Of a DNA stretch of 64,000 bases, positions 34,428-50,833 are shown piece by piece (within the stretch, counting starts at the first letter, position 1; the number at the start of each line of letters is the position of its first letter). The stretch comes from Kineococcus aurantiacus (GTDB taxonomy: Bacteria; Actinomycetota; Actinomycetes; Actinomycetales; Kineococcaceae). The stretch covers positions 1,736,001-1,800,000 of the forward strand of contig NZ_JACCBB010000001.1 in the NCBI RefSeq assembly GCF_013409345.1. The letters are read 5' to 3'. The notes under the pieces were generated by a model. It worked only from the letters and a program-made list of their open reading frames with translations, searched no databases and was not told the origin of the DNA. The translations under genes and the position numbers were made by a program.

Positions 34428-35717
34428 TCAGCCCTTCAGCAGCGCGGCCTGCTCCAGGCGCAGCGCGTCGATGAGACGCCCCTGCGGCAGGACCACGTCG
34501 TCGTACGTCAGGACCTGGTCCTTCTTCACGTCGCGCTTGAGGACGCAGCCCTCGGCGACGCCCATCGGGAGCAGGTTCTGCGCCTTGGTCGCCGCGTACG
34601 TCTCGGCCACGCCGTAGGAGTCGTAGCCGCCGAGGCGGTCGATCTCCTTGCCGGCGGCGAGGTCGGTCTTGGCCGTGGTGACGACCTCGACCTTCACCTC
34701 GTCACCGGGCACGATGGCGGCGTCGGCGAACAGGACCGCGCGGGCGACGGTCAGCGGCACCTCGAAGTGGCACAGGTGGTACGGCGTGTAGAACGAGTAC
34801 AGCGGCCCGGTGCCGAGCTTGTACAGGTTCAGGTAGTGCTGCTGCTTGGGGTCGTCGTGCGTGCCGAGGACGTACACGCCCGGGCCCGGCTTGGACCCCA
34901 CGACGTAGTCCACGACGCCGCCGAGCTCCTTGAGCTGGTCCACGTCGTAGTGCGTCGTGAGCTCGTCGACGTGCCCGCGGTGGTCGGCGCCGCGCATGCC
35001 GCGCTTCTCCACGCTGAACCCGGCCGCGTTGGCGACCAGGGCCTGCTCGAAGGACACCTTGGTGCCGTCGGCGAAGCTCGTCACCATGTAGGGGTCCTGC
35101 CCCCACTGCTTGGCGAACCCCTCCTGGGTGGTGGGGTTGCGGTACTCGTCCTGCAGGCCCTTGATGTTCCCCGAGACCAGCGGCGTGACGCCGATGGACC
35201 GCACGAAGCGGATGAGGTTCATCTGCACGCCGGGCTGGTCGCCGTCGCAGCCGGTGTAGACCACACCGGCCTTCTCGGCGCGGGTGCGCAGGGCCAGGCC
35301 CGCGGTCCCGTCGACCTCGGCGTTGAGCAGGACGATGTGCTTGCCCTGCTCGATGGCCCGGACGACGACGTGCGCGCCGTACTCGGTGTTGCCCGTCGCC
35401 TCGACGACGGCCTCGACCTGGCCGGCGTCGACGACCGCCTCGTAGGAGCCGGACACGACGGGCTTGCCCTGCGCGATGGCCTTGTCGACCGCCGCGGCGG
35501 AGTCGGCCTCGACCACGCCGGTGACCCCGGCCTGCTCGTAGGCGTCGCGCGCCTTGGACACCGTGCGGTTGGCGATGGCGACGAGCTCCATGCCGGGCAC
35601 GGAGTTCACGACCTGGTTGACGAACCCGCGGCCCATGAACCCGGCGCCGACGAGGGCGACGCGGATGGGCCGCCCCTCGGCCTGGCGCTGCTGGAGCGCC
35701 TTGTCGACGATGATCAA
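34428..35717 (-). CDS. SAF-domain NAD(P)-dependent dehydrogenase of nucleotide-sugar type
   Basis: A 429-residue protein. Residues about 15-170 are a homoserine-dehydrogenase-like Rossmann domain (VALVGAGFMGRGFVNQVV, IVLLNAEVDGTAG). The middle is specific (GCDGDQPGVQMNLIRFVRSI, TGPLYSFYTPYHLCHFEVPL). The C-terminus, about 360-429, is a SAF beta-clip (AAGKEIDRLGGYDSYG...VLKRDVKKDQVLTYDDV). Proteins of this sort occur in surface-sugar clusters with unknown reactions. Start: TTG at 35717, overlapping the epimerase stop by 4 bases; no ATG or GTG fits. Last gene of the rfbF-SDR-epimerase-SAF operon. Confidence 0.8.
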   Translation of the reverse strand: MIIVDKALQQRQAEGRPIRVALVGAGFMGRGFVNQVVNSVPGMELVAIANRTVSKARDAYEQAGVTGVVEADSAAAVDKAIAQGKPVVSGSYEAVVDAGQVEAVVEATGNTEYGAHVVVRAIEQGKHIVLLNAEVDGTAGLALRTRAEKAGVVYTGCDGDQPGVQMNLIRFVRSIGVTPLVSGNIKGLQDEYRNPTTQEGFAKQWGQDPYMVTSFADGTKVSFEQALVANAAGFSVEKRGMRGADHRGHVDELTTHYDVDQLKELGGVVDYVVGSKPGPGVYVLGTHDDPKQQHYLNLYKLGTGPLYSFYTPYHLCHFEVPLTVARAVLFADAAIVPGDEVKVEVVTTAKTDLAAGKEIDRLGGYDSYGVAETYAATKAQNLLPMGVAEGCVLKRDVKKDQVLTYDDVVLPQGRLIDALRLEQAALLKG

Positions 35718-36259
35718 GAGAGTTCGGCCCCGTCCGCGAGGAGGGTCCAGCTCTTGTCCTTGTCGCTGATGACCGCGACCTCGCGCGCCCAGGGCAGGGC
35801 GAGGTCGGGGTCGTCGTACCGCAGGCCGCGCTCGGTGCCCGGGGTGTAGCTCTGGGACACCTGGTACACGACCTCGGCGCCGTCGGTCAGCGTCAGGTAG
35901 CCGTGCGCGAAGTACTCCGGCACGTACAGGGCCGTGCGGTTCTCGGCGGTCAGCTCGACCGCGACGTGCTGGAACCGCGTGGGCGAGCCCGGGCGCAGGT
36001 CGACGATGATGTCCTGGATCGCGCCGGCGGTGCAGCGCACCAGCTTGGCCTCCGGCGCGGGGTCGACCTGCGTGTGCATGCCGCGCAGCGTCCCGGCCTT
36101 GTGGTTGTAGGACAGGTTGCACTGCTCGACGGCCGGGTTCAGGCCGGCCGCGAGGAACTCCTCGCGGCAGAACGTGCGGGCGAAGAAGCCGCGGTCGTCC
36201 GCGCGCTCCTCGAGCTCGACGATCGCGACGCCCTCGATGTGGGTCCCGGTGATCTTCAC
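35714..36259 (-). CDS. RmlC-type nucleotide-sugar 3,5-epimerase
   Basis: A 181-residue cupin. VEQCNLSYNHKAGTLRGMH carries the catalytic His within LRGMH, VRCTAGAIQDIIVDLRPGSPT follows, and LYVPEYFAHGYLTLTDGAEV precedes a C-terminal Tyr (YQVSQSYTPGTERG). These are the marks of dTDP-4-dehydrorhamnose 3,5-epimerases. The context (cytidylyltransferase) suggests a CDP- rather than dTDP-linked substrate. GTG at 36259 overlaps the SDR stop by 4 bases and its stop overlaps the SAF gene TTG start. Confidence 0.88.
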   Translation of the reverse strand: MKITGTHIEGVAIVELEERADDRGFFARTFCREEFLAAGLNPAVEQCNLSYNHKAGTLRGMHTQVDPAPEAKLVRCTAGAIQDIIVDLRPGSPTRFQHVAVELTAENRTALYVPEYFAHGYLTLTDGAEVVYQVSQSYTPGTERGLRYDDPDLALPWAREVAVISDKDKSWTLLADGAELS

Positions 36260-37305
36260 TTGGCGATCCCGCTGGTCGGAGCGACCTTCCAGAACAGTTC
36301 CTTGTCGAGCTGCTCGGTGCGGATGAGGTGCTCGAGCTGCTTGAGGCGGGTGTGCCCCCGGCCCTTGAACGTGGCCTCGTCCAGGTCGATCGCCTTGAAG
36401 ACGTCGACGAGCTGCTGGGCGCCCTTGTCGGCGTTCCAGTCGCAGCGGAAGCCCTCGAGCGTGGAGTGGATCTTGTCGAAGTTCACCTTGTACGAGCGGT
36501 TGTCGCCGTTGTTGCTCTCACCGAAGGTGATCTCGGCCTCGGGCAGGGCCCGGCCGACGGCCTCGGCGATCTCGCGGACGCGGTAGACCTGCTCGGAGTC
36601 GCCCACGTTGAAGATCTGGTTGTGGACGGCCTCGCGCGGGGCGTCGAGGACGGCGCGGATCGACTTGGCGATGTCCAGGCCGTGGACCAGCGGGCGCCAG
36701 GGCGACCCGTCGGAGGTCATGGCGATCTTGCCCGTGGTCCAGGCCAGGCCCGCGAGGTTGTTCAGCACGATGTCGAAGCGCTGACGGGGCGAGGCGCCGT
36801 ACGCGGTGGCGTTGCGCATGAACGTCGGGGAGAACTCGTCGTCGGCCAGCAGCGCGACGTCGCGCTCGACGAGCGCCTTGCACTCGGCGTACGCGGTCTG
36901 CGGGTTCACGGCCGACGTCTCGTCGACGGTGTCCTCGGCCACGCCGTAGACGGAGCAGCTCGACATGTAGACGAACTTCTGGACGCCGGCCTGCTTGGCG
37001 ACCTCGGCCAGGCGCACCGACCCCTTGTGGTTCACGGTGAACGTGACGTCGGGGATGAGCTCACCGAGCGGGTCGTTGGACAGCTCGGCCATGTGCACGA
37101 CGGCGTCGGCCCCGGCGAGGTCCTCGACGGTCACGTGGCGGATGTCCTTGGCCAGCGTCTCGACCGAGGCGGTGACGCCGTTGTAGAGCCAGCCCTGCTT
37201 GTAGTAGCCGGTGTCGATGCCGAGCACCGAGTGGCCGGACTCGAGCAGGGTGGGGGCGAGCAGGGCGCCGAGGTAGCCCTCGGTCCCGGTGACGACGATC
37301 TTCAC
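36256..37305 (-). CDS. NAD-dependent nucleotide-sugar epimerase/dehydratase (extended SDR)
   Basis: A 349-residue extended SDR. VTGTEGYLGALLAPTLLESG is the cofactor loop (GxxGxxG), MSSCSVYG contains the catalytic Ser, and TAYAECKAL the YxxxK pair. The last 100 residues (AEITFGESNNGDNRSYKVNF) match sugar-nucleotide substrate domains. It probably acts on the CDP-hexose made by the cytidylyltransferase; epimerase or 4,6-dehydratase activity is not decided by sequence. GTG at 37305, with GGAGAA 5 bases upstream. 25 bases downstream of rfbF. Confidence 0.87.
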   Translation of the reverse strand: MKIVVTGTEGYLGALLAPTLLESGHSVLGIDTGYYKQGWLYNGVTASVETLAKDIRHVTVEDLAGADAVVHMAELSNDPLGELIPDVTFTVNHKGSVRLAEVAKQAGVQKFVYMSSCSVYGVAEDTVDETSAVNPQTAYAECKALVERDVALLADDEFSPTFMRNATAYGASPRQRFDIVLNNLAGLAWTTGKIAMTSDGSPWRPLVHGLDIAKSIRAVLDAPREAVHNQIFNVGDSEQVYRVREIAEAVGRALPEAEITFGESNNGDNRSYKVNFDKIHSTLEGFRCDWNADKGAQQLVDVFKAIDLDEATFKGRGHTRLKQLEHLIRTEQLDKELFWKVAPTSGIAK

Positions 37306-37330
37306 TTCAGTTCTCCGGTTCTCGGGGGTC

Positions 37331-38158
37331 TCAGTCTTCCCAGGTCTTCCACGGGGCCTTGCCGGAGTCCCAGAGCTTGTTGAACTCGGTCCACTCGCGG
37401 AAGGTGTCCATGCCCAGCCAGTAGCCCTCGTGCTGCGAGACCGTCAGCTGGCCGTCGCGCGCCACCGTCTGCAGCGGCTTCTGCTCGAGCATCATGTCGG
37501 GGTCGTCCTCGAGGTACTTGTCCGCGAAGGCGCGGTCGAAGACGAAGAACCCGCCGTTGACCCAGCCGTCGGCCAGGGTCGGCTTCTCGTTGAACTCGGT
37601 GACGGTGTCGCCCGTGACGTGCATCTCGCCGTAGCGCGAGCTGGGGTGCACGGCGGTCACGGTGGCCAGGCGGCCGCCGGCCTCGTGGTCGCGCAGCGTC
37701 TTGAGGATGTCGACGTCGCCGAGGCCGTCGCCGTAGGTCAGCACGAACTTGTCGGCGGTCAGGTGCTGCTCGACGCGCTTGATGCGGGCCGCGGTCGCGG
37801 TGGTCAGGCCGGTCTCGACGAAGGTCACGTCCCAGTCCTCCTGCACACCGTTGGTGTGGAAGGTCGGGGCGTCCTGGGTCGACAGGTTCAGCGTGAAGTC
37901 ACCGGCGTTGATCCGGTAGTCGAGGAAGTAGCGCTTGATGAGGTCGCTCTTGTAGCCCAGGCAGAGGACGAACTTGCGGAAGCCGTAGGAGCTGTAGAGC
38001 TTCATGATGTGCCACAGGATCGGCCGGCCACCGATGTCGACGAGCGGCTTGGGCAGCTTCTCGCTGGCCTCGCGCAGCCGGGTGCCCATGCCACCGCAGA
38101 GGATGACGACGGGGATCTCGGAGACGGGCGTCCCGCCGGGAGCAACGGACTCGGTCAT
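37331..38158 (-). CDS. rfbF: Glucose-1-phosphate cytidylyltransferase
   Basis: A 275-residue nucleotidyltransferase: VVILCGGMGTRLREASEKLPKPLV in the RfbF form, LWHIMKLYSSYGFRKFVLCLGY, and LTYGDGLGDVDIL for the metal/sugar site. It makes CDP-glucose from CTP and glucose-1-phosphate, the entry to CDP-linked deoxy sugars. ATG at 38158 with GAGGGAAG 4 bases upstream. First gene of a four-gene operon with SDR, 3,5-epimerase and SAF dehydrogenase. No separate CDP-glucose 4,6-dehydratase (rfbG) or rfbH is visible. The 248 bases upstream (38159-38406) hold an inverted repeat at about 38270-38310 and no gene. Confidence 0.95.
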   Translation of the reverse strand: MTESVAPGGTPVSEIPVVILCGGMGTRLREASEKLPKPLVDIGGRPILWHIMKLYSSYGFRKFVLCLGYKSDLIKRYFLDYRINAGDFTLNLSTQDAPTFHTNGVQEDWDVTFVETGLTTATAARIKRVEQHLTADKFVLTYGDGLGDVDILKTLRDHEAGGRLATVTAVHPSSRYGEMHVTGDTVTEFNEKPTLADGWVNGGFFVFDRAFADKYLEDDPDMMLEQKPLQTVARDGQLTVSQHEGYWLGMDTFREWTEFNKLWDSGKAPWKTWED

Positions 38159-38406: not shown

Positions 38407-39579
38407 TCAGCTACGGATAGACGACAGCAGGTCACGCAGAGGAGTCATGGCGGATTCCCAGGAGAACCCGCGGCCGATCTGCGCCCCCGCCGCGCCCAGG
38501 GCGCGGACCTGCTCGGGGTGCTCCAGCAGGTCCACCAGCGCCGCCGCGAACGCCTCGGCCCCGTCGGCCGTGCGCACCGCCGCCGCGTGCTCCTCCAGCC
38601 CCTCCAGCCCCAGCGACGTCGTGACGACCGCCCGGCCCCGCGACAGCGCCTCCACCAGCTTGATCTTGGTCCCGCCCCCCGACAGCAGCGGCACGACGCA
38701 GATGTCGGCGGCGTCGTAGAACGGGTCGACCGCGGCGACGTCGGAGTGGAAGCGGACCCCCGCCGGCTCCCCCGCCGGCCGCGGGTGCGAGGCCGCCAGC
38801 CCGCGGCCCACGACGTCGAACCGCGCGTCGGGGACCCGGCGCAGCACCAGCGGCCACACCTCGTCGAGGAACCAGCGCAGCGACGCCTTGTTCGGGCCGT
38901 AGTCCATCGCCCCCACGAACAGCACCCGCCCCTCCCCGCGCAGCGGCGCCGGGTCGGCGCCGGCGCCGGTCAGCACGCCGTTGGGCACGAAGGTGCTCTC
39001 CACGCCCGCCGCCGCCAGGACCTCCTGGTCGCGCCGCGAGCAGGCCGTCACCCGCCGCGCCCGGCGCGCCTGGGCGAACTCGAAGCGGCGGAAGCGCGCG
39101 ACCTCCAGCCCCAGCGCGCGCCGCAGCCGCGGGTGCTCCGAGCGCAGGCGGCGCTCCAGCAGGTCGGACTCGACGTTGTGCAGGTCCAGGACGTCGACGT
39201 GGACGTCCGCGGGCACGTTGACGGCCATCTGCGGGAAGTCGACGTGCACGACGTCGCGGGCGCGCACCCCCACCGACAGCAGCCGGTGGATCGCCGGGGA
39301 GAACCACTTGCCCGCGAACACCGAACCGCGCAGCACCGCCCCCGGCCGCGGGGACGGCGAACCGACCTCGTGCACCGTCACGTGCCCGGGCAGCTGGGCC
39401 CGCCAGTCCGGCCAGGCGTCGAAGCCGACGACGTGGACCTCCTCGAAGACCGCGGCGTAGGCGTCGATGACGGCGCGGGTGCGCTGGCGCCCCCCGGAGT
39501 CGGTCGTCGCCGGCAACTGCTTGGCCACCACCCAGGCCGTCCGCCGCCCCGGACCGCCCACGTTCCCGTTCCCCTGCAC
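38407..39579 (-). CDS. Glycosyltransferase, GT4 (GT-B fold)
   Basis: A 390-residue retaining-type glycosyltransferase. N-terminal AWVVAKQLPATTDSGGRQRT; VDVLDLHNVESDLLERRL; the donor domain has VLFVGAMDYGPNKASLRWFLDEVWP and SGGGTKIKLVEALSRGRAVVTTS, where the Glu of the GT4 E-x7-E region lies. The acceptor and donor are unknown. Start: GTG at 39579. It lies alone on the minus strand between rfbF and the divergent GT2 gene; part of the polysaccharide region. Confidence 0.88.
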   Translation of the reverse strand: MQGNGNVGGPGRRTAWVVAKQLPATTDSGGRQRTRAVIDAYAAVFEEVHVVGFDAWPDWRAQLPGHVTVHEVGSPSPRPGAVLRGSVFAGKWFSPAIHRLLSVGVRARDVVHVDFPQMAVNVPADVHVDVLDLHNVESDLLERRLRSEHPRLRRALGLEVARFRRFEFAQARRARRVTACSRRDQEVLAAAGVESTFVPNGVLTGAGADPAPLRGEGRVLFVGAMDYGPNKASLRWFLDEVWPLVLRRVPDARFDVVGRGLAASHPRPAGEPAGVRFHSDVAAVDPFYDAADICVVPLLSGGGTKIKLVEALSRGRAVVTTSLGLEGLEEHAAAVRTADGAEAFAAALVDLLEHPEQVRALGAAGAQIGRGFSWESAMTPLRDLLSSIRS

Positions 39580-42188: not shown

Positions 42189-43733
42189 TCAGAAGAGCTC
42201 GCGGTACTTCGCGGCCGACTTCGGCATGCGGGTGTCGCCCGTGAGGATCCAGCGCTTGTTGTCGCGGTCGACGTTGAACTGCACCTCGTACAGGAGCTTG
42301 CCGGCGCCGGTGCCGCCGTTGGCCTCGAAGAAGTCGTGCATGCCCTGGATGAAGGCCGGGGAGTCACCGTTGTCGGCGTTGCCGGACCACTCCGAGATGG
42401 ACAGCGGCAGACCCACGCTCTTGGCGAAGGCGAGGTGCTGGGCCAGGCCCTTGGGGGCGCCGAAGCCGTCCTTCTCCTGGATGGCCGAGGCGAAGGTCGC
42501 CGCGTCACCCGCGTACGGGTACTGGTTGTAGTAGTCGACACCCATGACGTCGACGTACTGCGCACCCGGGAAGGTCTGACGCCAGTCCATGCCCGTCCCG
42601 ACCGACTCGCGGTTGAGGTTGAAGACCAGCTTCGCGCCCGGGAAGATCTCCTTCTGCAGCGCGCGGTAGCGCTTCCAGGAGGTGATGAAGTCCTGGTAGT
42701 TGTTCTTGTTGACCGACCAGGCGTACCAGTTGCCGTTCATCTCGTGCGCGAACCGGATGTACGCGGTGCCGGGACGGTTGCCCCACTTGTTCTTCAGCGT
42801 GGTCAGCGAGGCGCGCCAGCGGGCGTCGTAGGAACCCCGCGCGGCGTTGGCCCAGGTCTCACCGGAACCGATGCCGCCGACGGCGATGTCCAGGTCCTTG
42901 TCCCAGGAACCGAACTCGGCGCCCCGGTCGAGCTGCCAGAAGTTCGCGGCCGCGGTGTTGTTGTCGGCCCACGTGGCGGAGACCTCGACGGCCGAACCGC
43001 GCCAGGAGGCGAACGTGCCGGAGGCGACACCGACACCGGAGGCGCCGGAGTGCCAGTCACCGGAGGTCACCGGGGTGCTGGGCGTGGTGGGCGCCGGGGT
43101 GGTCGGCGCCGGGGTGGTCGGCGTGGGGGTCGGCTGCGTGGGACGCGGGCTCGGCGTCACGACGGGCGTCGAACCGGTGCCGCTGGTCGTGCCGGCCGAC
43201 TTCACCAGGATGCCGTCGACCTTCGCGTTGTTCTTCGTGGCCGAGAAACCCAGGTCGATCGAACCGTCGGCCACCTTCACCTGGAACGTCTTGTCCAGGC
43301 GGGCGTTCTTGCCGACCGCGGCGAAGATGTCCAGGTTCTCGACGACCTTCTGGCCCTCGGCGGTGACCGAGAACACGCGGGTGTTCGCCGTGGTGAAGTA
43401 GGTCTCGGCGAACTTCAGCGTGACGTCGTAGGTGCCGTTGGGGACCTGCGCGGCCCACTTCGACATGCCCCAGTGCTCGTTCTGGTAGAGCCCGGAGGAC
43501 GTGGTGCCGGCGATGCTCGCGGTGGTGACGTTCGAGACCTGGTACCCGCCGACGAAACCGGCGTCCTTCTTCCAGACGTTGCCGGCCGCGTCGGTGTAGT
43601 CGACCTTGCCGGTGCCCTGGCGGATCGTGACGCCGGTGTCGGCGGAGGCGGCCGAGGCACCGGCCGTGGTGAAACCGCCGGCGACGGTGGCGACGGCAGC
43701 GGCGGACAGGAGGAACTTCGAAACCTTGGACAT
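42189..43733 (-). CDS. Secreted glycoside hydrolase: malectin-like domain plus GH26-type catalytic domain
   Basis: A 514-residue exported protein. Signal peptide 1-32 (MSKVSKFLLSAAAVATVAGG...ASAASA). About 34-180 is a malectin/CBM57-like carbohydrate-binding beta-sandwich (VDYTDAAGNVWKKDAG, KFAETYFTTANTRVFSVT, GFSATKNNAKVDGILV). A Pro/Thr linker lies about 182-218. The catalytic domain about 225-514 has RFAHEMNGNWYAW (acid/base Glu about 331) and LPLSISEWSGN (nucleophile Glu about 446), the GH26 arrangement. It should cleave a beta-mannan or related secreted polysaccharide, possibly the one made by this region. Start: ATG at 43733. Confidence 0.9.
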   Translation of the reverse strand: MSKVSKFLLSAAAVATVAGGFTTAGASAASADTGVTIRQGTGKVDYTDAAGNVWKKDAGFVGGYQVSNVTTASIAGTTSSGLYQNEHWGMSKWAAQVPNGTYDVTLKFAETYFTTANTRVFSVTAEGQKVVENLDIFAAVGKNARLDKTFQVKVADGSIDLGFSATKNNAKVDGILVKSAGTTSGTGSTPVVTPSPRPTQPTPTPTTPAPTTPAPTTPSTPVTSGDWHSGASGVGVASGTFASWRGSAVEVSATWADNNTAAANFWQLDRGAEFGSWDKDLDIAVGGIGSGETWANAARGSYDARWRASLTTLKNKWGNRPGTAYIRFAHEMNGNWYAWSVNKNNYQDFITSWKRYRALQKEIFPGAKLVFNLNRESVGTGMDWRQTFPGAQYVDVMGVDYYNQYPYAGDAATFASAIQEKDGFGAPKGLAQHLAFAKSVGLPLSISEWSGNADNGDSPAFIQGMHDFFEANGGTGAGKLLYEVQFNVDRDNKRWILTGDTRMPKSAAKYRELF

Positions 43734-44876: not shown

Positions 44877-46373
44877 TCAGCCGCGGCGGCCCGCGACCTC
44901 CGGGGAGACCTGCTGGCTGCCGCCGGCCGGGCGCGGCCGCTGCTCCAGGCGGTGGTTCTCCCCGCCGCCCGAGCTCGACGTGTCACCCACGACGACCTGC
45001 GCCACGACGTCCGGCGCCGCGATCGACAGCTGGGCCAGCGTCTTGCTGACGACCTCGGCGCGCGGGTCGGCCTCCACCTGGACCAGGACGGCGTCGACCT
45101 CACCGGCCACCGCGAACGCCACCGGGCTGGAGACGACCGAGCCACCCACGAAGATCACCAGGTAGCCGGCCTCGACGAGGTGGCGGACACCGGACCCCAC
45201 GGCGTGCGGCTGCAGCGAGCGGGCGTCCAGCGGCAGGATGCCGACGACGGCCCCGCCGCCGACGACCCACGGGCGGATCTCCTCGCTCCAGCGGCCCTGC
45301 GGGACGTTGGCGCTCGCCTCGGCGACCGGCGCGCCGAAGACGGCCAGCCGGCTGCCGGACTCGTCGGCGTCGACCATGACGACGCGACGGCCCGAGCGGG
45401 CGGCCGACGCGGCCAGCCCCAGGGCCAGCGCCCCGGCGTTGCCCGAGGCCGCCGTGACCAGCACGCTGCTGACCTCCAGGCGCGGGGTGCGCAGGTGGCC
45501 CAGGTGCTGCAGACCGACGAGCACGACCCCCGTGGAGCGGCTCGGCTCGCTCAGCGGGTCGCTCAGCGCGCGGAAGGAGGGCAGGTTGCCCCAGCGCGCC
45601 AGCTCCGCGATGCCCCCCAGCGGCGGAGCGGTGACGCGCTGCTTGAGGTGGGCCGCCCACGCCACCGCACCGGCGGCGGCGAGCAGGCCGACGATCCCGG
45701 CGACGAGAGCGATCTGCCACGGGTACGGCGCGGCCGCGCCGTTCGGCACCGTCGCGGCGTCGACGCTCGCCACGCCCGAGCCGTACGTCGTCGCGGCGAG
45801 GTTGATCTGCTGCACCGTCGTGGTGTCGCTGCTCTCGACGTTCGCCAGCGCCGCGTCGCGGGCCGTCGTGACGTTCTGCGCGGACAGCGCCTGGTAGGCG
45901 TACGCGACGGCGTCGGCGGTGTCCGCGGCGTCCTGCGCGCTGGAGGCCGAGCTCGTCACGGTGATCTGGTTGGTGTCGGTCTGGGCCGTCACCGTCAGGC
46001 CGTCGCGGAACGTGTCGACGTCCTCGGCCGGCACCTGCACCGTCGCGGCGCCGGTCCCCGTCGGCACCGGCGCGGTGGCGGCCTGCAGGACCGCGCTGGA
46101 CTTCACCACGGCGGCCTGCAGCGCCGCCCACTGCGTGGGGTCGCCGAGCTGGGCGCCGTTGTTGCCCGTCGCCGTCGCGTCGAACGGGCGGTCCTTGGAC
46201 AGCGTGATCGTCGTCGTCGCCGTGTAGACCGGCGGGATGAAGTTCGCCGCCCCCAGGTAGCCGAGCACCGCCATCACGACGGCGACCGCGAGCACCTTCC
46301 AGCGGTGCCGGAAGACGGCCGCCCAGGCCCCCGGGCCGTTCCGTTCCGTCATCCCCGTCGTCGTCGCCGCCAC
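44877..46373 (-). CDS. Wzz/BY-kinase-like polysaccharide co-polymerase, Walker A degenerate
   Basis: A 498-residue inner-membrane protein. First membrane helix WKVLAVAVVMAVLGYLGAA (about 24-42), an extracellular Wzz-like domain, second helix QIALVAGIVGLLAAAGAVAW, then a cytosolic CpsD-like ATPase domain. In that domain the expected P-loop lies at VLVTAASGNAGALALGLA and has no Lys/Ser-Thr, while VVMVDADESG (Walker A') remains. The C-terminus has no tyrosine cluster. It may set chain length without kinase activity. Start: GTG at 46373 with GGAGGGG 7 bases upstream; an ATG at 46352 is possible. Confidence 0.85.
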   Translation of the reverse strand: MAATTTGMTERNGPGAWAAVFRHRWKVLAVAVVMAVLGYLGAANFIPPVYTATTTITLSKDRPFDATATGNNGAQLGDPTQWAALQAAVVKSSAVLQAATAPVPTGTGAATVQVPAEDVDTFRDGLTVTAQTDTNQITVTSSASSAQDAADTADAVAYAYQALSAQNVTTARDAALANVESSDTTTVQQINLAATTYGSGVASVDAATVPNGAAAPYPWQIALVAGIVGLLAAAGAVAWAAHLKQRVTAPPLGGIAELARWGNLPSFRALSDPLSEPSRSTGVVLVGLQHLGHLRTPRLEVSSVLVTAASGNAGALALGLAASAARSGRRVVMVDADESGSRLAVFGAPVAEASANVPQGRWSEEIRPWVVGGGAVVGILPLDARSLQPHAVGSGVRHLVEAGYLVIFVGGSVVSSPVAFAVAGEVDAVLVQVEADPRAEVVSKTLAQLSIAAPDVVAQVVVGDTSSSGGGENHRLEQRPRPAGGSQQVSPEVAGRRG

Positions 46374-46682
46374 TCGAGCCCCTCCTGGTTCCTCGGATGT
46401 CCCCCACCCGGCTGACCGCCCGCGGGCGGTCCGTGTCGCGGTCACTATCCCACCCGTCCGCCGGTCCGCGGTCTCCCGGGAGAGCCTCGGAGCGCGGTGT
46501 GACCCGTCCGGAGCAGCCTTCCGCCACTCCGACCGGGTGAAGCGGCGACCCCGAGCGCACGGATGCGGGATCCACAGCTGATCGGACCCCCCGGCCGGCG
46601 CGCCGCCACCTACGATGACACGCACGGCGCCGTCCTCGACCGCCGTTCACAGATCTCCTACCTCCGACCCCGGGAGCGGCGC

Positions 46683-49690: not shown

Positions 49691-50833
49691 TCACGTACCG
49701 GTCGGCACCACGTCACCCGATGCGCCGAAGCGCGCCAGGTAGGCCGCGGAGCCGTTCGGGGCGTCCGCGAGGGTCATGCCGACGCCGCCGTCGGTGGTGT
49801 TGAAGTAGGCCTGGTAGCGCAGGTTCGCGGACGCCATGACGTCGGCCATCCGGTTGACGAAGTCCGGGCTGTCGCCGCCGCCCTGGGTGTCGCCCTCGGC
49901 GACCATGGCCCACTCGGGGAAGCTGACGGGCTTGTCGCGCTCCTCGGCGAAGGCGACGACGGCCGAGACGCTGTTGACCTTCTCGTCCTTGGCCTGCCAG
50001 CGGGCGGTCGGGTCGATCGGGGAGATGTAGGAGTCGTAGACGTCGACGCCGATGATGTCGACGTAGTCGTCACCGGGGTAGAGCTCCTCGATGGACACGG
50101 AGTTCTGCGGGCCCTCGGCGATGGTGAAGTCGACCTCGAAGTCGGACCCCTCGACCTCCATGGCCATGACGATGCGGCGGAAGTACTCCTTCCACTGCTC
50201 GCGCTTCTCCTCGGTGTCGCCGACGTAGTGGGTGGCGTACCACTTGCCGTTGAGCTCCCAGCCGATGCGGACGATCGAGGAGCCCAGGCCGACGTCGACG
50301 AGGTTCTGGCCGAACTTCCTCCAGTGCTCGTCGTACTCCCCCGCCGCGCCGCGGGCCCGCCAGTCCTCGTCGGGGTCCTTGGGGACCATGGCGGTGGAGA
50401 TGACGAGGGTGCGGTTGTCGGGGTCGTCGCGGACCCACTGCGCCCAGTCCTGCCCCTCGGGGGCGTCGATGGCGAACCAGGGGCCCTCGATGGCGGGCCA
50501 GTCGGTCTCGGCGCCGAAGACGACGACGCAGTCCAGCGGGCGGCCGAGGTAGTCCTCGAACCGCTCGGCGACGGCGACGTCGTGGGTCTGGACGCCGACC
50601 CACTTGGAGTCGAGGTCGGCGGCGGGCGTGTGGGCCCTGGGCCGCCAGGCGTACGGGGTCGGCTGGGGGGTGATCGGCGCGGACGTGTCGCGCGTGCCCC
50701 ACCAGACGCCGGCTCCCGCCGCGGCGGCGGCGAGCACGCCGACGCCGGCTCCGATGACCCCGCGGCGGCCGTGCTTGCGCGGCCGGCCGGGCCCCCCGGT
50801 CGTGGGGCTCTCCTGGTGCGTCGTGTCCACCAC
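49691..50833 (-). CDS. Anchored or exported glycoside hydrolase, GH26-type
   Basis: A 380-residue protein. Residues 18-45 (PRKHGRRGVIGAGVGVLAAA) look like a twin-arginine-type signal or membrane anchor (GRRGVIGAG). About 65-375 is a GH26-like TIM barrel: VRIGWELNGKWYATH (acid/base Glu about 193; Trp instead of the His that precedes Glu in GH26), and KPVSFPEWAMVAEG (nucleophile Glu about 307). The substrate is unknown; polysaccharide turnover in the same region is likely. GTG at 50833 (a second GTG follows). Divergent from the methyltransferase; the gap 50834-51111 contains TAGAGT on the minus strand near 50950, a weak -10. Confidence 0.85.
   Translation of the reverse strand: MVDTTHQESPTTGGPGRPRKHGRRGVIGAGVGVLAAAAAGAGVWWGTRDTSAPITPQPTPYAWRPRAHTPAADLDSKWVGVQTHDVAVAERFEDYLGRPLDCVVVFGAETDWPAIEGPWFAIDAPEGQDWAQWVRDDPDNRTLVISTAMVPKDPDEDWRARGAAGEYDEHWRKFGQNLVDVGLGSSIVRIGWELNGKWYATHYVGDTEEKREQWKEYFRRIVMAMEVEGSDFEVDFTIAEGPQNSVSIEELYPGDDYVDIIGVDVYDSYISPIDPTARWQAKDEKVNSVSAVVAFAEERDKPVSFPEWAMVAEGDTQGGGDSPDFVNRMADVMASANLRYQAYFNTTDGGVGMTLADAPNGSAAYLARFGASGDVVPTGT

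What the first reader, a model, noticed from the sequence alone, without database searches (positions are those of the whole stretch)
34428..38158. Four-gene CDP-sugar operon with an SAF-domain dehydrogenase
Glucose-1-phosphate cytidylyltransferase, an SDR, an RmlC-type 3,5-epimerase and a SAF-domain, homoserine-dehydrogenase-like protein are tightly packed, with 4-base overlaps between the last three. The usual partner genes (rfbG, rfbH) are absent. The set predicts a CDP-activated deoxy or unusual sugar whose final step is done by a protein class without an established reaction. This is the best candidate in the window for an undescribed pathway.
Basis: partly seen in the sequence, partly recalled or inferred. 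Interest (0 to 1): 0.7.

Follow-up and report, generated by a model that had tools for sequence, protein, structure and literature searches.

The report
CDP-sugar operon with DXR-like enzyme
A Kineococcus four-gene operon, whose relatives recur in several bacterial phyla and in a streptomycin-type gene cluster, probably turns glucose-1-phosphate into an unusual CDP-linked sugar, with a last step done by a relative of an isoprenoid-pathway reductoisomerase.

Summary
In detail: four minus-strand genes (34428-38158) with 4-base overlaps at the two later junctions. Two labels change. The 'SAF, homoserine-dehydrogenase-like' protein D is a full-length homologue of DXR type II (Brucella DRL; model TM 0.94), in a separate clade that fits the uncharacterised DLO1 family. 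The SDR (B) is not a dehydratase: its best solved relative is 6VO6 (recalled as Cj1427, a C4-dehydrogenase that turns 2-oxoglutarate into L-2-hydroxyglutarate). Fittingly, an L-2-hydroxyglutarate oxidase gene precedes B in 29 of 33 cyanobacterial loci and 3 of 3 Deinococcus loci opened; only 2 of 11 Kineococcus genomes have one, the window's not. In Persicobacter a CDP-glucose 4,6-dehydratase takes B's place. Most likely pathway: glucose-1-P, CDP-glucose, CDP-4-keto-glucose (not deoxy), 3,5-epimer, then reduction by D to a CDP-L-hexose. Homologues of all four genes lie in a streptomycin-type cluster of Streptomyces griseocarneus (recalled strQ/P/X/U), so the pathway is not wholly undescribed. 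A bolder reading stays open: D may contract the ring as DXR rearranges its substrate, giving a branched, streptose-like sugar. No product is shown.

The parts
37331..38158 (-). A: glucose-1-phosphate cytidylyltransferase (CDP-glucose synthase)
   Evidence: TIGR02623 299.4 bits, E 2e-89, cut-off 300.25; PDB 1TZF E 1.2e-71
36256..37305 (-). B: SDR, proposed CDP-glucose C4-dehydrogenase (no dehydration)
   Evidence: only PDB relative at E<=1e-15 is 6VO6/6VO8; profile 165.2 bits against 108.6 for the next; (M/A)S(S/T)CS(V/I)YG and YxxxK in 59 of 59
35714..36259 (-). C: RmlC-type 3,5-epimerase
   Evidence: TIGR01221 over cut-off; S52, H64, K74, Y134 invariant in 76 of 76
34428..35717 (-). D: DXR-II/DRL homologue with SAF domain (fits DLO1), proposed terminal NAD(P)H-dependent step
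   Evidence: PF21135; 3UPL E 5e-63; model pLDDT 95.1, 3UPY TM 0.94/0.93; own clade
36256..36259 (-). 4-base GTGA overlap of B stop and C start
35714..35717 (-). 4-base TTGA overlap of C stop and D start
38407..39579 (-). neighbouring GT4-like glycosyltransferase, possible consumer of the sugar
   Evidence: PF13692; a homologue precedes the cassette in 3 of the 5 other Kineococcus genomes examined for it (L069 and L071 are the same contig by length and count once)

Best explanation
The operon makes a CDP-activated, non-deoxy sugar by the logic of the rhamnose pathway without the dehydration. A makes CDP-glucose. B oxidises C4 to CDP-4-keto-glucose, probably keeping its NAD bound and re-oxidising it with 2-oxoglutarate, as its closest solved relative is reported to do. 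C epimerises C3 and/or C5 next to the ketone. D, a DXR-II-like oxidoreductase, ends the pathway with NAD(P)H; most likely it simply reduces the C4 ketone, giving a CDP-L-hexose (by analogy with rhamnose, L-manno: a rhamnose that keeps its 6-OH), which a neighbouring glycosyltransferase puts into exopolysaccharide. Shown: the gene families, the conserved cassette, the predicted fold of D. Inferred: every reaction of B, C and D, and the product.
For: Cassette conservation: A 55, B 58, C 76 of 80 named loci, 0 of 20 control loci; seen in Actinomycetota, Pseudomonadota, Cyanobacteriota and Deinococcota. Of the 22 loci without B, 12 genomes were searched and 12 of 12 have a B homologue elsewhere at E<=1e-30 (36-74% identity). 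B as C4 oxidase: closest to 6VO6; no dehydratase motif; L-2-hydroxyglutarate oxidase directly before B in 29 of 33 cyanobacterial loci, within the flanks in 7 of 47 others, and between A and B in 3 of 3 Deinococcus plasmids opened, against 0 of 20 controls; Cj1427 is reported to turn 2-oxoglutarate into L-2-hydroxyglutarate (PMC10680097, passages). In both Persicobacter plasmids a CDP-glucose 4,6-dehydratase (488 and 459 bits, cut-off 278) and two RmlC-like genes precede D, so what D's partners share is a CDP-4-keto sugar. C. jejuni makes GDP-L-gluco-heptose in the same order: C4-dehydrogenase, C3/C5-epimerase, C4-reductase. A streptomycin-type cluster carries homologues of all four, with RmlB and RmlD homologues about 13 kb away; N-methyl-L-glucosamine, an L-hexose, is then the sugar left for them (inference). 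The own genome has DXR-I, so D is not needed for isoprenoids.
Against: No L-2-hydroxyglutarate oxidase over cut-off in the window's own genome, and in only 2 of 11 genomes of the genus; none in the 13 Pseudomonadota loci of the set, and in Gemmobacter only a homologue under the cut-off (187.7 against 299): the 2-oxoglutarate loop is not supported there. In those 13 loci any B found is only 35-38% identical. D's nearest characterised relatives rearrange the carbon skeleton as well as reduce; nothing here shows that D does not. L106 has full flanks but no A, B or C nearby. The 80 loci were chosen by likeness to D. Stereochemistry and cofactor are untested.
Confidence: 0.55

Rival explanations
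1. D is a ring-contracting reductoisomerase: as in the DXR reaction, C2 moves from C3 to the C4 ketone, C3 becomes an aldehyde branch, and NAD(P)H reduces it, giving a CDP-3-C-hydroxymethyl-pentofuranose (dihydrohydroxystreptose type).
For: D has the whole DXR-II fold. The chemistry is formally that of DXP to MEP (known chemistry, recalled). PMC3847144 lists Coxiella burnetii and Streptomyces griseus NBRC 13350 among DLO1 holders; PMC9095892 says that dihydrohydroxystreptose and streptose are each made by one organism, these two, and that two activities for the former (making the 6-OH 4-keto substrate, and the sugar synthase) are unidentified. The solved RmlC with the lowest E-value to C is 7PVI (recalled as CBU1838), only narrowly ahead of 3RYK.
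Against: In the S. griseocarneus cluster RmlB and RmlD homologues, as expected for the dTDP route to streptose, are present (RmlA and RmlC of that route were not looked for), leaving N-methyl-L-glucosamine, an uncontracted hexose, for the cassette. The authors of PMC9095892 favour an RmlD paralogue for the contraction. Residues kept between D and DXR-II may be those of reductases in general. Where the Coxiella DLO1 gene lies was not seen (one search found no paper).
Confidence: 0.25
2. D oxidises or reduces another carbon (for instance C2, preparing amination), or epimerises, and the 4-ketone is handled by an enzyme elsewhere.
For: Aminotransferase-family genes lie in the S. griseocarneus cluster and about 6 kb from a Rhizobium D (L241).
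Against: Six annotated plasmid loci with a cassette-type D list no aminotransferase; the other loci were not scanned for one. A conserved gene beside a 4-keto-sugar epimerase is most simply the step that ends the 4-keto state.
Confidence: 0.15
3. D is a true DXR-II for the MEP pathway placed by chance in a sugar operon.
For: PF21135 and fold.
Against: T229 of DXR-II is I, V or L in 86 of 86 cassette D proteins and one of the two anchor lysines is lost; separate clade; DXR-I present; four DLO1/DLO2 proteins failed to complement a dxr mutant (PMC3847144).
Confidence: 0.03

Closest known systems
strP/strQ/strX(/strU) genes of the streptomycin cluster
   Same: homologues of B, A, C and D together (S. 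griseocarneus: B 47%, A 55%, C 62%, D 66% identical)
   Different: there split over two strands and inside an antibiotic cluster; here an exopolysaccharide-type locus, with no aminotransferase among the ten neighbours scanned; gene names matched to A-D by recall
GDP-D-glycero-L-gluco-heptose pathway of Campylobacter jejuni (Cj1427, Cj1430, Cj1428)
   Same: C4-dehydrogenase, C3/C5-epimerase, reductase, without dehydration (PMC10680097, passages)
   Different: GDP-heptose instead of CDP-glucose; another protein family ends it (an SDR, recalled)
dTDP-L-rhamnose pathway RmlABCD
   Same: nucleotidyltransferase, SDR, RmlC, terminal reductase (recalled)
   Different: CDP; no 4,6-dehydration; DXR-II-like D in place of RmlD
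DXR type II (DRL) and its sister family DLO1
   Same: whole fold, SAF domain
   Different: substrate-anchor residues changed; genomic setting; no DXR activity expected
Proposed Coxiella dihydrohydroxystreptose pathway
   Same: a 4-keto non-deoxy sugar and an RmlC double epimerase (PMC9095892); a DLO1 gene in the genome (PMC3847144)
   Different: dTDP-based; two enzymes unidentified in the 2022 paper

Membership tests
CDP-3,6-dideoxyhexose (rfbFGH) pathway | CDP-glucose 4,6-dehydratase RfbG | tested here: not met
   best 82.9 bits against cut-off 278.45 in the whole genome
CDP-3,6-dideoxyhexose (rfbFGH) pathway | 3-dehydrase RfbH | tested here: not met
   best 129.4 against 423 in the whole genome; none of the 14 control genomes passes either
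DXR type II (DRL) | fold and DRL catalytic domain | tested here: met
   PF21135 180 bits; model matches 3UPY, TM 0.94
DXR type II (DRL) | Thr229, Lys191 and Lys193 that hold the inhibitor/substrate (PMC3847144) | tested here: not met
   T229 is V here; only one of the two lysines is kept: one search aligns it with K193, with K191
DXR type II (DRL) | complements a dxr mutant | not testable with these tools
   -
DLO1 | Leu, Ile or Val at position 229 | tested here: met
   V here; I, V or L in 86 of 86 cassette D proteins
DLO1 | falls in the published DLO1 clade | tested here: inconclusive
   separate from DXR-II-like rows and Kineococcus radiotolerans is listed as DLO1, but the listed sequences themselves were not available
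Cj1427-type C4-dehydrogenase | sequence relationship | tested here: met
   6VO6 the only hit at 1e-15, first by 56.6 bits with a profile; identity of 6VO6 as Cj1427 recalled
Cj1427-type C4-dehydrogenase | 2-oxoglutarate-dependent turnover with tightly bound NAD(H) | not testable with these tools
   indirect: L-2-hydroxyglutarate oxidase beside B in many loci, over cut-off in only 2 of 11 Kineococcus genomes
RmlC 3,5-epimerase | His base and Tyr acid, Ser and Lys at the sugar site | tested here: met
   76 of 76
RmlC 3,5-epimerase | accepts a substrate with 6-OH (Phe at 123 replaced, as in CBU1838) | tested here: inconclusive
   Tyr in 60, Phe in 16 of 76; Tyr here
strPQXU streptomycin genes | homologues inside a streptomycin-type cluster | tested here: met
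   L114/L153/L154 with APH(6)-type kinase, StrB-like amidinotransferase (by eye), alkaline phosphatase, RmlB and RmlD homologues
strPQXU streptomycin genes | make N-methyl-L-glucosamine | not testable with these tools
   function recalled as proposed only

The most novel reading that the evidence does not exclude
DLO1 proteins, D among them, are DXR-like ring-contracting reductoisomerases of nucleotide sugars: the same rearrangement-plus-reduction chemistry as the isoprenoid enzyme, used on a 4-keto-hexose to make branched, streptose-like furanoses in several phyla; they would supply the contraction step reported missing for dihydrohydroxystreptose.
Probability: 0.25. Interest if true: 0.85.

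Novelty: new variant of a known kind. Interest (0 to 1): 0.6.

Why it matters
It gives an unassigned branch of the DXR-II superfamily (DLO1) a concrete context: the last step of a conserved CDP-sugar cassette found in several phyla. It offers a testable source for the L-sugar of streptomycin and, in the bolder reading, for the unexplained ring contraction in streptose-type sugars. The link of the SDR to L-2-hydroxyglutarate recycling is also a clear prediction.

Tried and rejected
CDP-3,6-dideoxyhexose pathway: rejected, no RfbG/RfbH over cut-off. D as housekeeping DXR: rejected. D as homoserine dehydrogenase: the PDB homoserine dehydrogenase is only at E 1.2e-4, and those in the 50 structure matches listed have a query TM of at most 0.43.

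B as UDP-glucose 4-epimerase: GalE model 79.9 bits against 262.3; not excluded by sequence alone. The amidinotransferase search PF02274 in S. griseocarneus hit places on another contig (the first looks like arginine deiminase, by eye); the StrB-like gene was recognised by eye. The promoter/terminator scan gave no promoter and one terminator-like site against 1.4 expected. The sister group (L055, L057-L059, 'NKM') sits near A and C in two of four, near C alone in one (contig end), near none in one; its other neighbours (UDP-glucose dehydrogenase, SDRs) did not tell the reaction. Paper searches for cbu1831-1837 (0 papers) and for StrU or hydroxystreptomycin (0 papers) gave nothing; passages of PMC3539893 and PMC10663253 added nothing on the reaction. 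In one search I used a wrong residue offset for C position 123; one search corrects it. In one search a small alignment shifts the two lysine positions; both are reported.
Full report
1. The thing itself. Four minus-strand genes run from 38158 down to 34428. A (275 aa) is a glucose-1-phosphate cytidylyltransferase (PDB 1TZF). B (349 aa) is an extended SDR. C (181 aa) is an RmlC epimerase. D (429 aa, TTG start) has an NAD-binding domain, the catalytic domain of oxidoreductase DRL (PF21135) and a SAF domain. B/C and C/D overlap by 4 bases. The window is G000:C1:1736001-1800000 of a 5.03 Mb genome; its nearest named relatives are Kineococcus (D 89-97% identical; the four genes 82-97%).

2. Conservation. 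D is in 11 of 11 genomes of the genus; B, C and D are adjacent in the other 10. The order glycosyltransferase-A-B-C-D-panE-panC-lysS holds in 3 of 5 other Kineococcus genomes examined for it (L068, L069 = L071, L070); L072 and L073 show no glycosyltransferase hit, and in L073 panE lies about 3.6 kb further off. Of the 80: C 76, B 58, A 55, all three 53, order A-B-C-D 50; of the 57 with at least 9 kb on both sides: C 56, B 46, A 45, all three 43. The four without C are L090, L102, L121 (contig end close before D) and L106 (full flanks, a real exception). In 20 control loci around more distant PF21135-type proteins of Pseudomonadota, 18 with about 8 kb on each side and two cut short on one, none of A, B, C was found. 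Of the 22 loci without B, 12 genomes were searched and all 12 had a B homologue elsewhere. The cassette is uncommon: PF21135 of any type is in 64 of 396 Actinomycetota genomes, and of 18 loci that I took with flanks from that sample only 3 were full cassettes, a fourth (L059) showing a weak partial B; in Pseudomonadota 48 of 398 genomes had a D hit at 1e-30 but only two exceeded 50% identity, one of them the centre of the search.

3. D. By sequence D's only close solved relatives are 3UPL and 3UPY, the Brucella DRL (E 5e-63). An AlphaFold2 model from 24 aligned sequences (pLDDT 95.1, pTM 0.93) matches 3UPY over its whole length (TM 0.94/0.93, 32% identity); apart from the DRL chains, the 50 matches listed have a query TM of at most 0.43. 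PMC3847144 (parts 1-3 of 8 and passages read) divides the family into DXR-II (makes MEP) and two uncharacterised sister families, DLO1 and DLO2; four DLO1/2 proteins failed to complement a dxr mutant; position 229 is Thr in DXR-II, Leu/Ile/Val in DLO1, Pro/Ser/Ala in DLO2. With the published numbering reproduced (K191, K193, T229, E174, F178, R320, Y322, G121 all agree), 86 of 86 cassette D proteins have I, V or L at 229 and keep only one of the two anchor lysines (which one depends on the alignment). A tree of 131 rows puts 65 cassette D proteins on one side of a branch with SH-aLRT 100, apart from the DXR-II-like rows (quick method, long branches flagged). The genome has its own DXR-I. So D looks like a DLO1-type enzyme that is not needed to make MEP.

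4. B. No dehydratase model passes its cut-off. The motif at the dehydratase acid positions is (M/A)S(S/T)CS(V/I)YG in 59 of 59 B proteins, with YxxxK in all; the dehydratase motif is recalled knowledge, and the Persicobacter dehydratase shows TTDK. Its only PDB hit at 1e-15 is 6VO6/6VO8, which also leads a profile search by 165.2 to 108.6 bits. I recall these entries as Cj1427; the PDB table calls the molecule a putative sugar-nucleotide epimerase/dehydratase. PMC10680097 (passages) reports that Cj1427 oxidises C4 of GDP-heptose, holds NADH tightly and recycles it by turning 2-oxoglutarate into L-2-hydroxyglutarate, after which a C3/C5-epimerase and a C4-reductase act.

5. An independent clue. 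A homologue of L-2-hydroxyglutarate oxidase lies just before B in 29 of 33 cyanobacterial loci and within the flanks of 7 of 47 others, in none of the 13 Pseudomonadota loci; L099's copy scores 625 bits on the oxidase model (cut-off 299). Three of three Deinococcus plasmid loci opened (of four Deinococcus hits) read rfbF-lhgO-SDR-rfbC-D (one copy 588 bits). None of 20 controls has it. This fits a B that makes L-2-hydroxyglutarate. Against it: the window's own genome has no such oxidase over cut-off, only 2 of 11 genomes of the genus do, and the Gemmobacter locus has only a homologue under the cut-off, so another way of disposal, or another oxidant, must serve there.

6. A substitution. In two Persicobacter plasmids D follows two RmlC-like genes and a CDP-glucose 4,6-dehydratase (488 and 459 bits; the two RmlC-like proteins scored are just under the RmlC cut-off). 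What dehydratase and B have in common is a CDP-4-keto-hexose. That is the best evidence that D and C work downstream of a 4-keto sugar, deoxy or not.

7. Streptomycin. In Streptomyces griseocarneus L114, C and D lie next to A and B on the other strand, among an APH(6)-type kinase, another APH, a DegT aminotransferase, an alkaline phosphatase, two ABC half-transporters, a StrB-like amidinotransferase (by eye), an inositol-dehydrogenase-like protein (under its model's cut-off), and, about 13 kb from A and B, RmlB and RmlD homologues. I recall the corresponding genes as strQ (A), strP (B), strX (C), strU (D), proposed for N-methyl-L-glucosamine. PMC12498427 (passages) names strP, strQ, strX as essential streptomycin genes without saying in those passages which sugar they serve. 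If streptose is made by the RmlB/RmlD-type genes, an L-hexose is the likelier product of the cassette there. This favours plain reduction by D.

8. The bolder reading. PMC3847144 lists Coxiella burnetii and S. griseus as holders of DLO1, and PMC9095892 (introduction part 1, discussion and passages) says dihydrohydroxystreptose and streptose are each known from one organism, these two, and that two activities for the former are unidentified; its authors favour an RmlD paralogue for the contraction. A DXR-like enzyme is chemically apt. I could not see where the Coxiella DLO1 gene lies; PMC9095892 names two gene ranges as suggested for this sugar, of which PMC5843353 (passages) assigns one, cbu1831-1838, to other O-antigen sugars.

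9. C. Its sugar-site residues S52, H64, K74, Y134 are invariant in 76 of 76 sequences; position 123, Met in CBU1838 and Phe in other RmlC orthologues according to PMC9095892, is Tyr in 60 and Phe in 16: suggestive, not decisive.

10. In print. Searches for the gene set (0 papers), COG4091 (1, an isoprenoid study; passage), StrU with streptose (0), N-methyl-L-glucosamine genes (6 listed, one opened; the same one) and two or more of hydroxystreptomycin, griseocarneus, dihydrostreptose, strU, CDP-glucose, DLO1 (0) showed me no characterised product. The library holds only openly licensed papers, so this does not show that none exists.

11. Verdict. A real, conserved cassette; its first three steps can be predicted with fair confidence, the last enzyme's family is identified, the final reaction is open between two well-defined alternatives that one labelling experiment can separate.

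Noticed in passing
L239:8001-9341 (Priestia aryabhattai plasmid NZ_CP128554.1): A DXR-II-type (KKT) homologue beside sugar-binding regulators, an MFS transporter and an FGGY carbohydrate kinase: a catabolic-looking setting for a DXR-like enzyme.
   Followed up: no
L236:6813-10263 and L238:6827-10281 (Persicobacter plasmids): CDP-glucose 4,6-dehydratase, two tandem RmlC-like genes and a cassette-type D: perhaps a 6-deoxy version of the pathway.
   Followed up: partly
L200 and L201 (both in genome G557): One genome carries two cassette-type D genes (56% and 52% identical to the window's), each near B and a GT2 glycosyltransferase; A is clear in L200 (46%) and only weak in L201 (33%, no Pfam family at 1e-8).
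   Followed up: partly
L057:2737-5070: A 777-aa reading frame with Gfo/Idh/MocA and SDR domains fused, directly before an A-D-C set of the sister group.
   Followed up: no
window 42189-43733 and 49691-50833: A malectin-domain protein with a GH26-like part and a second GH26-like protein near a Wzz-like chain-length protein (44877-46625) and glycosyltransferases: an exopolysaccharide-type locus.
   Followed up: no
L097:4831-6099, L202:10778-12205, L203:10415-11857: A sugar C-methyltransferase (PF08484 in L097) or its homologue lies in 13 of the 80 named loci and near B and C homologues in two Frankia loci, suggesting C-methylated variants of the 4-keto sugar.
   Followed up: partly
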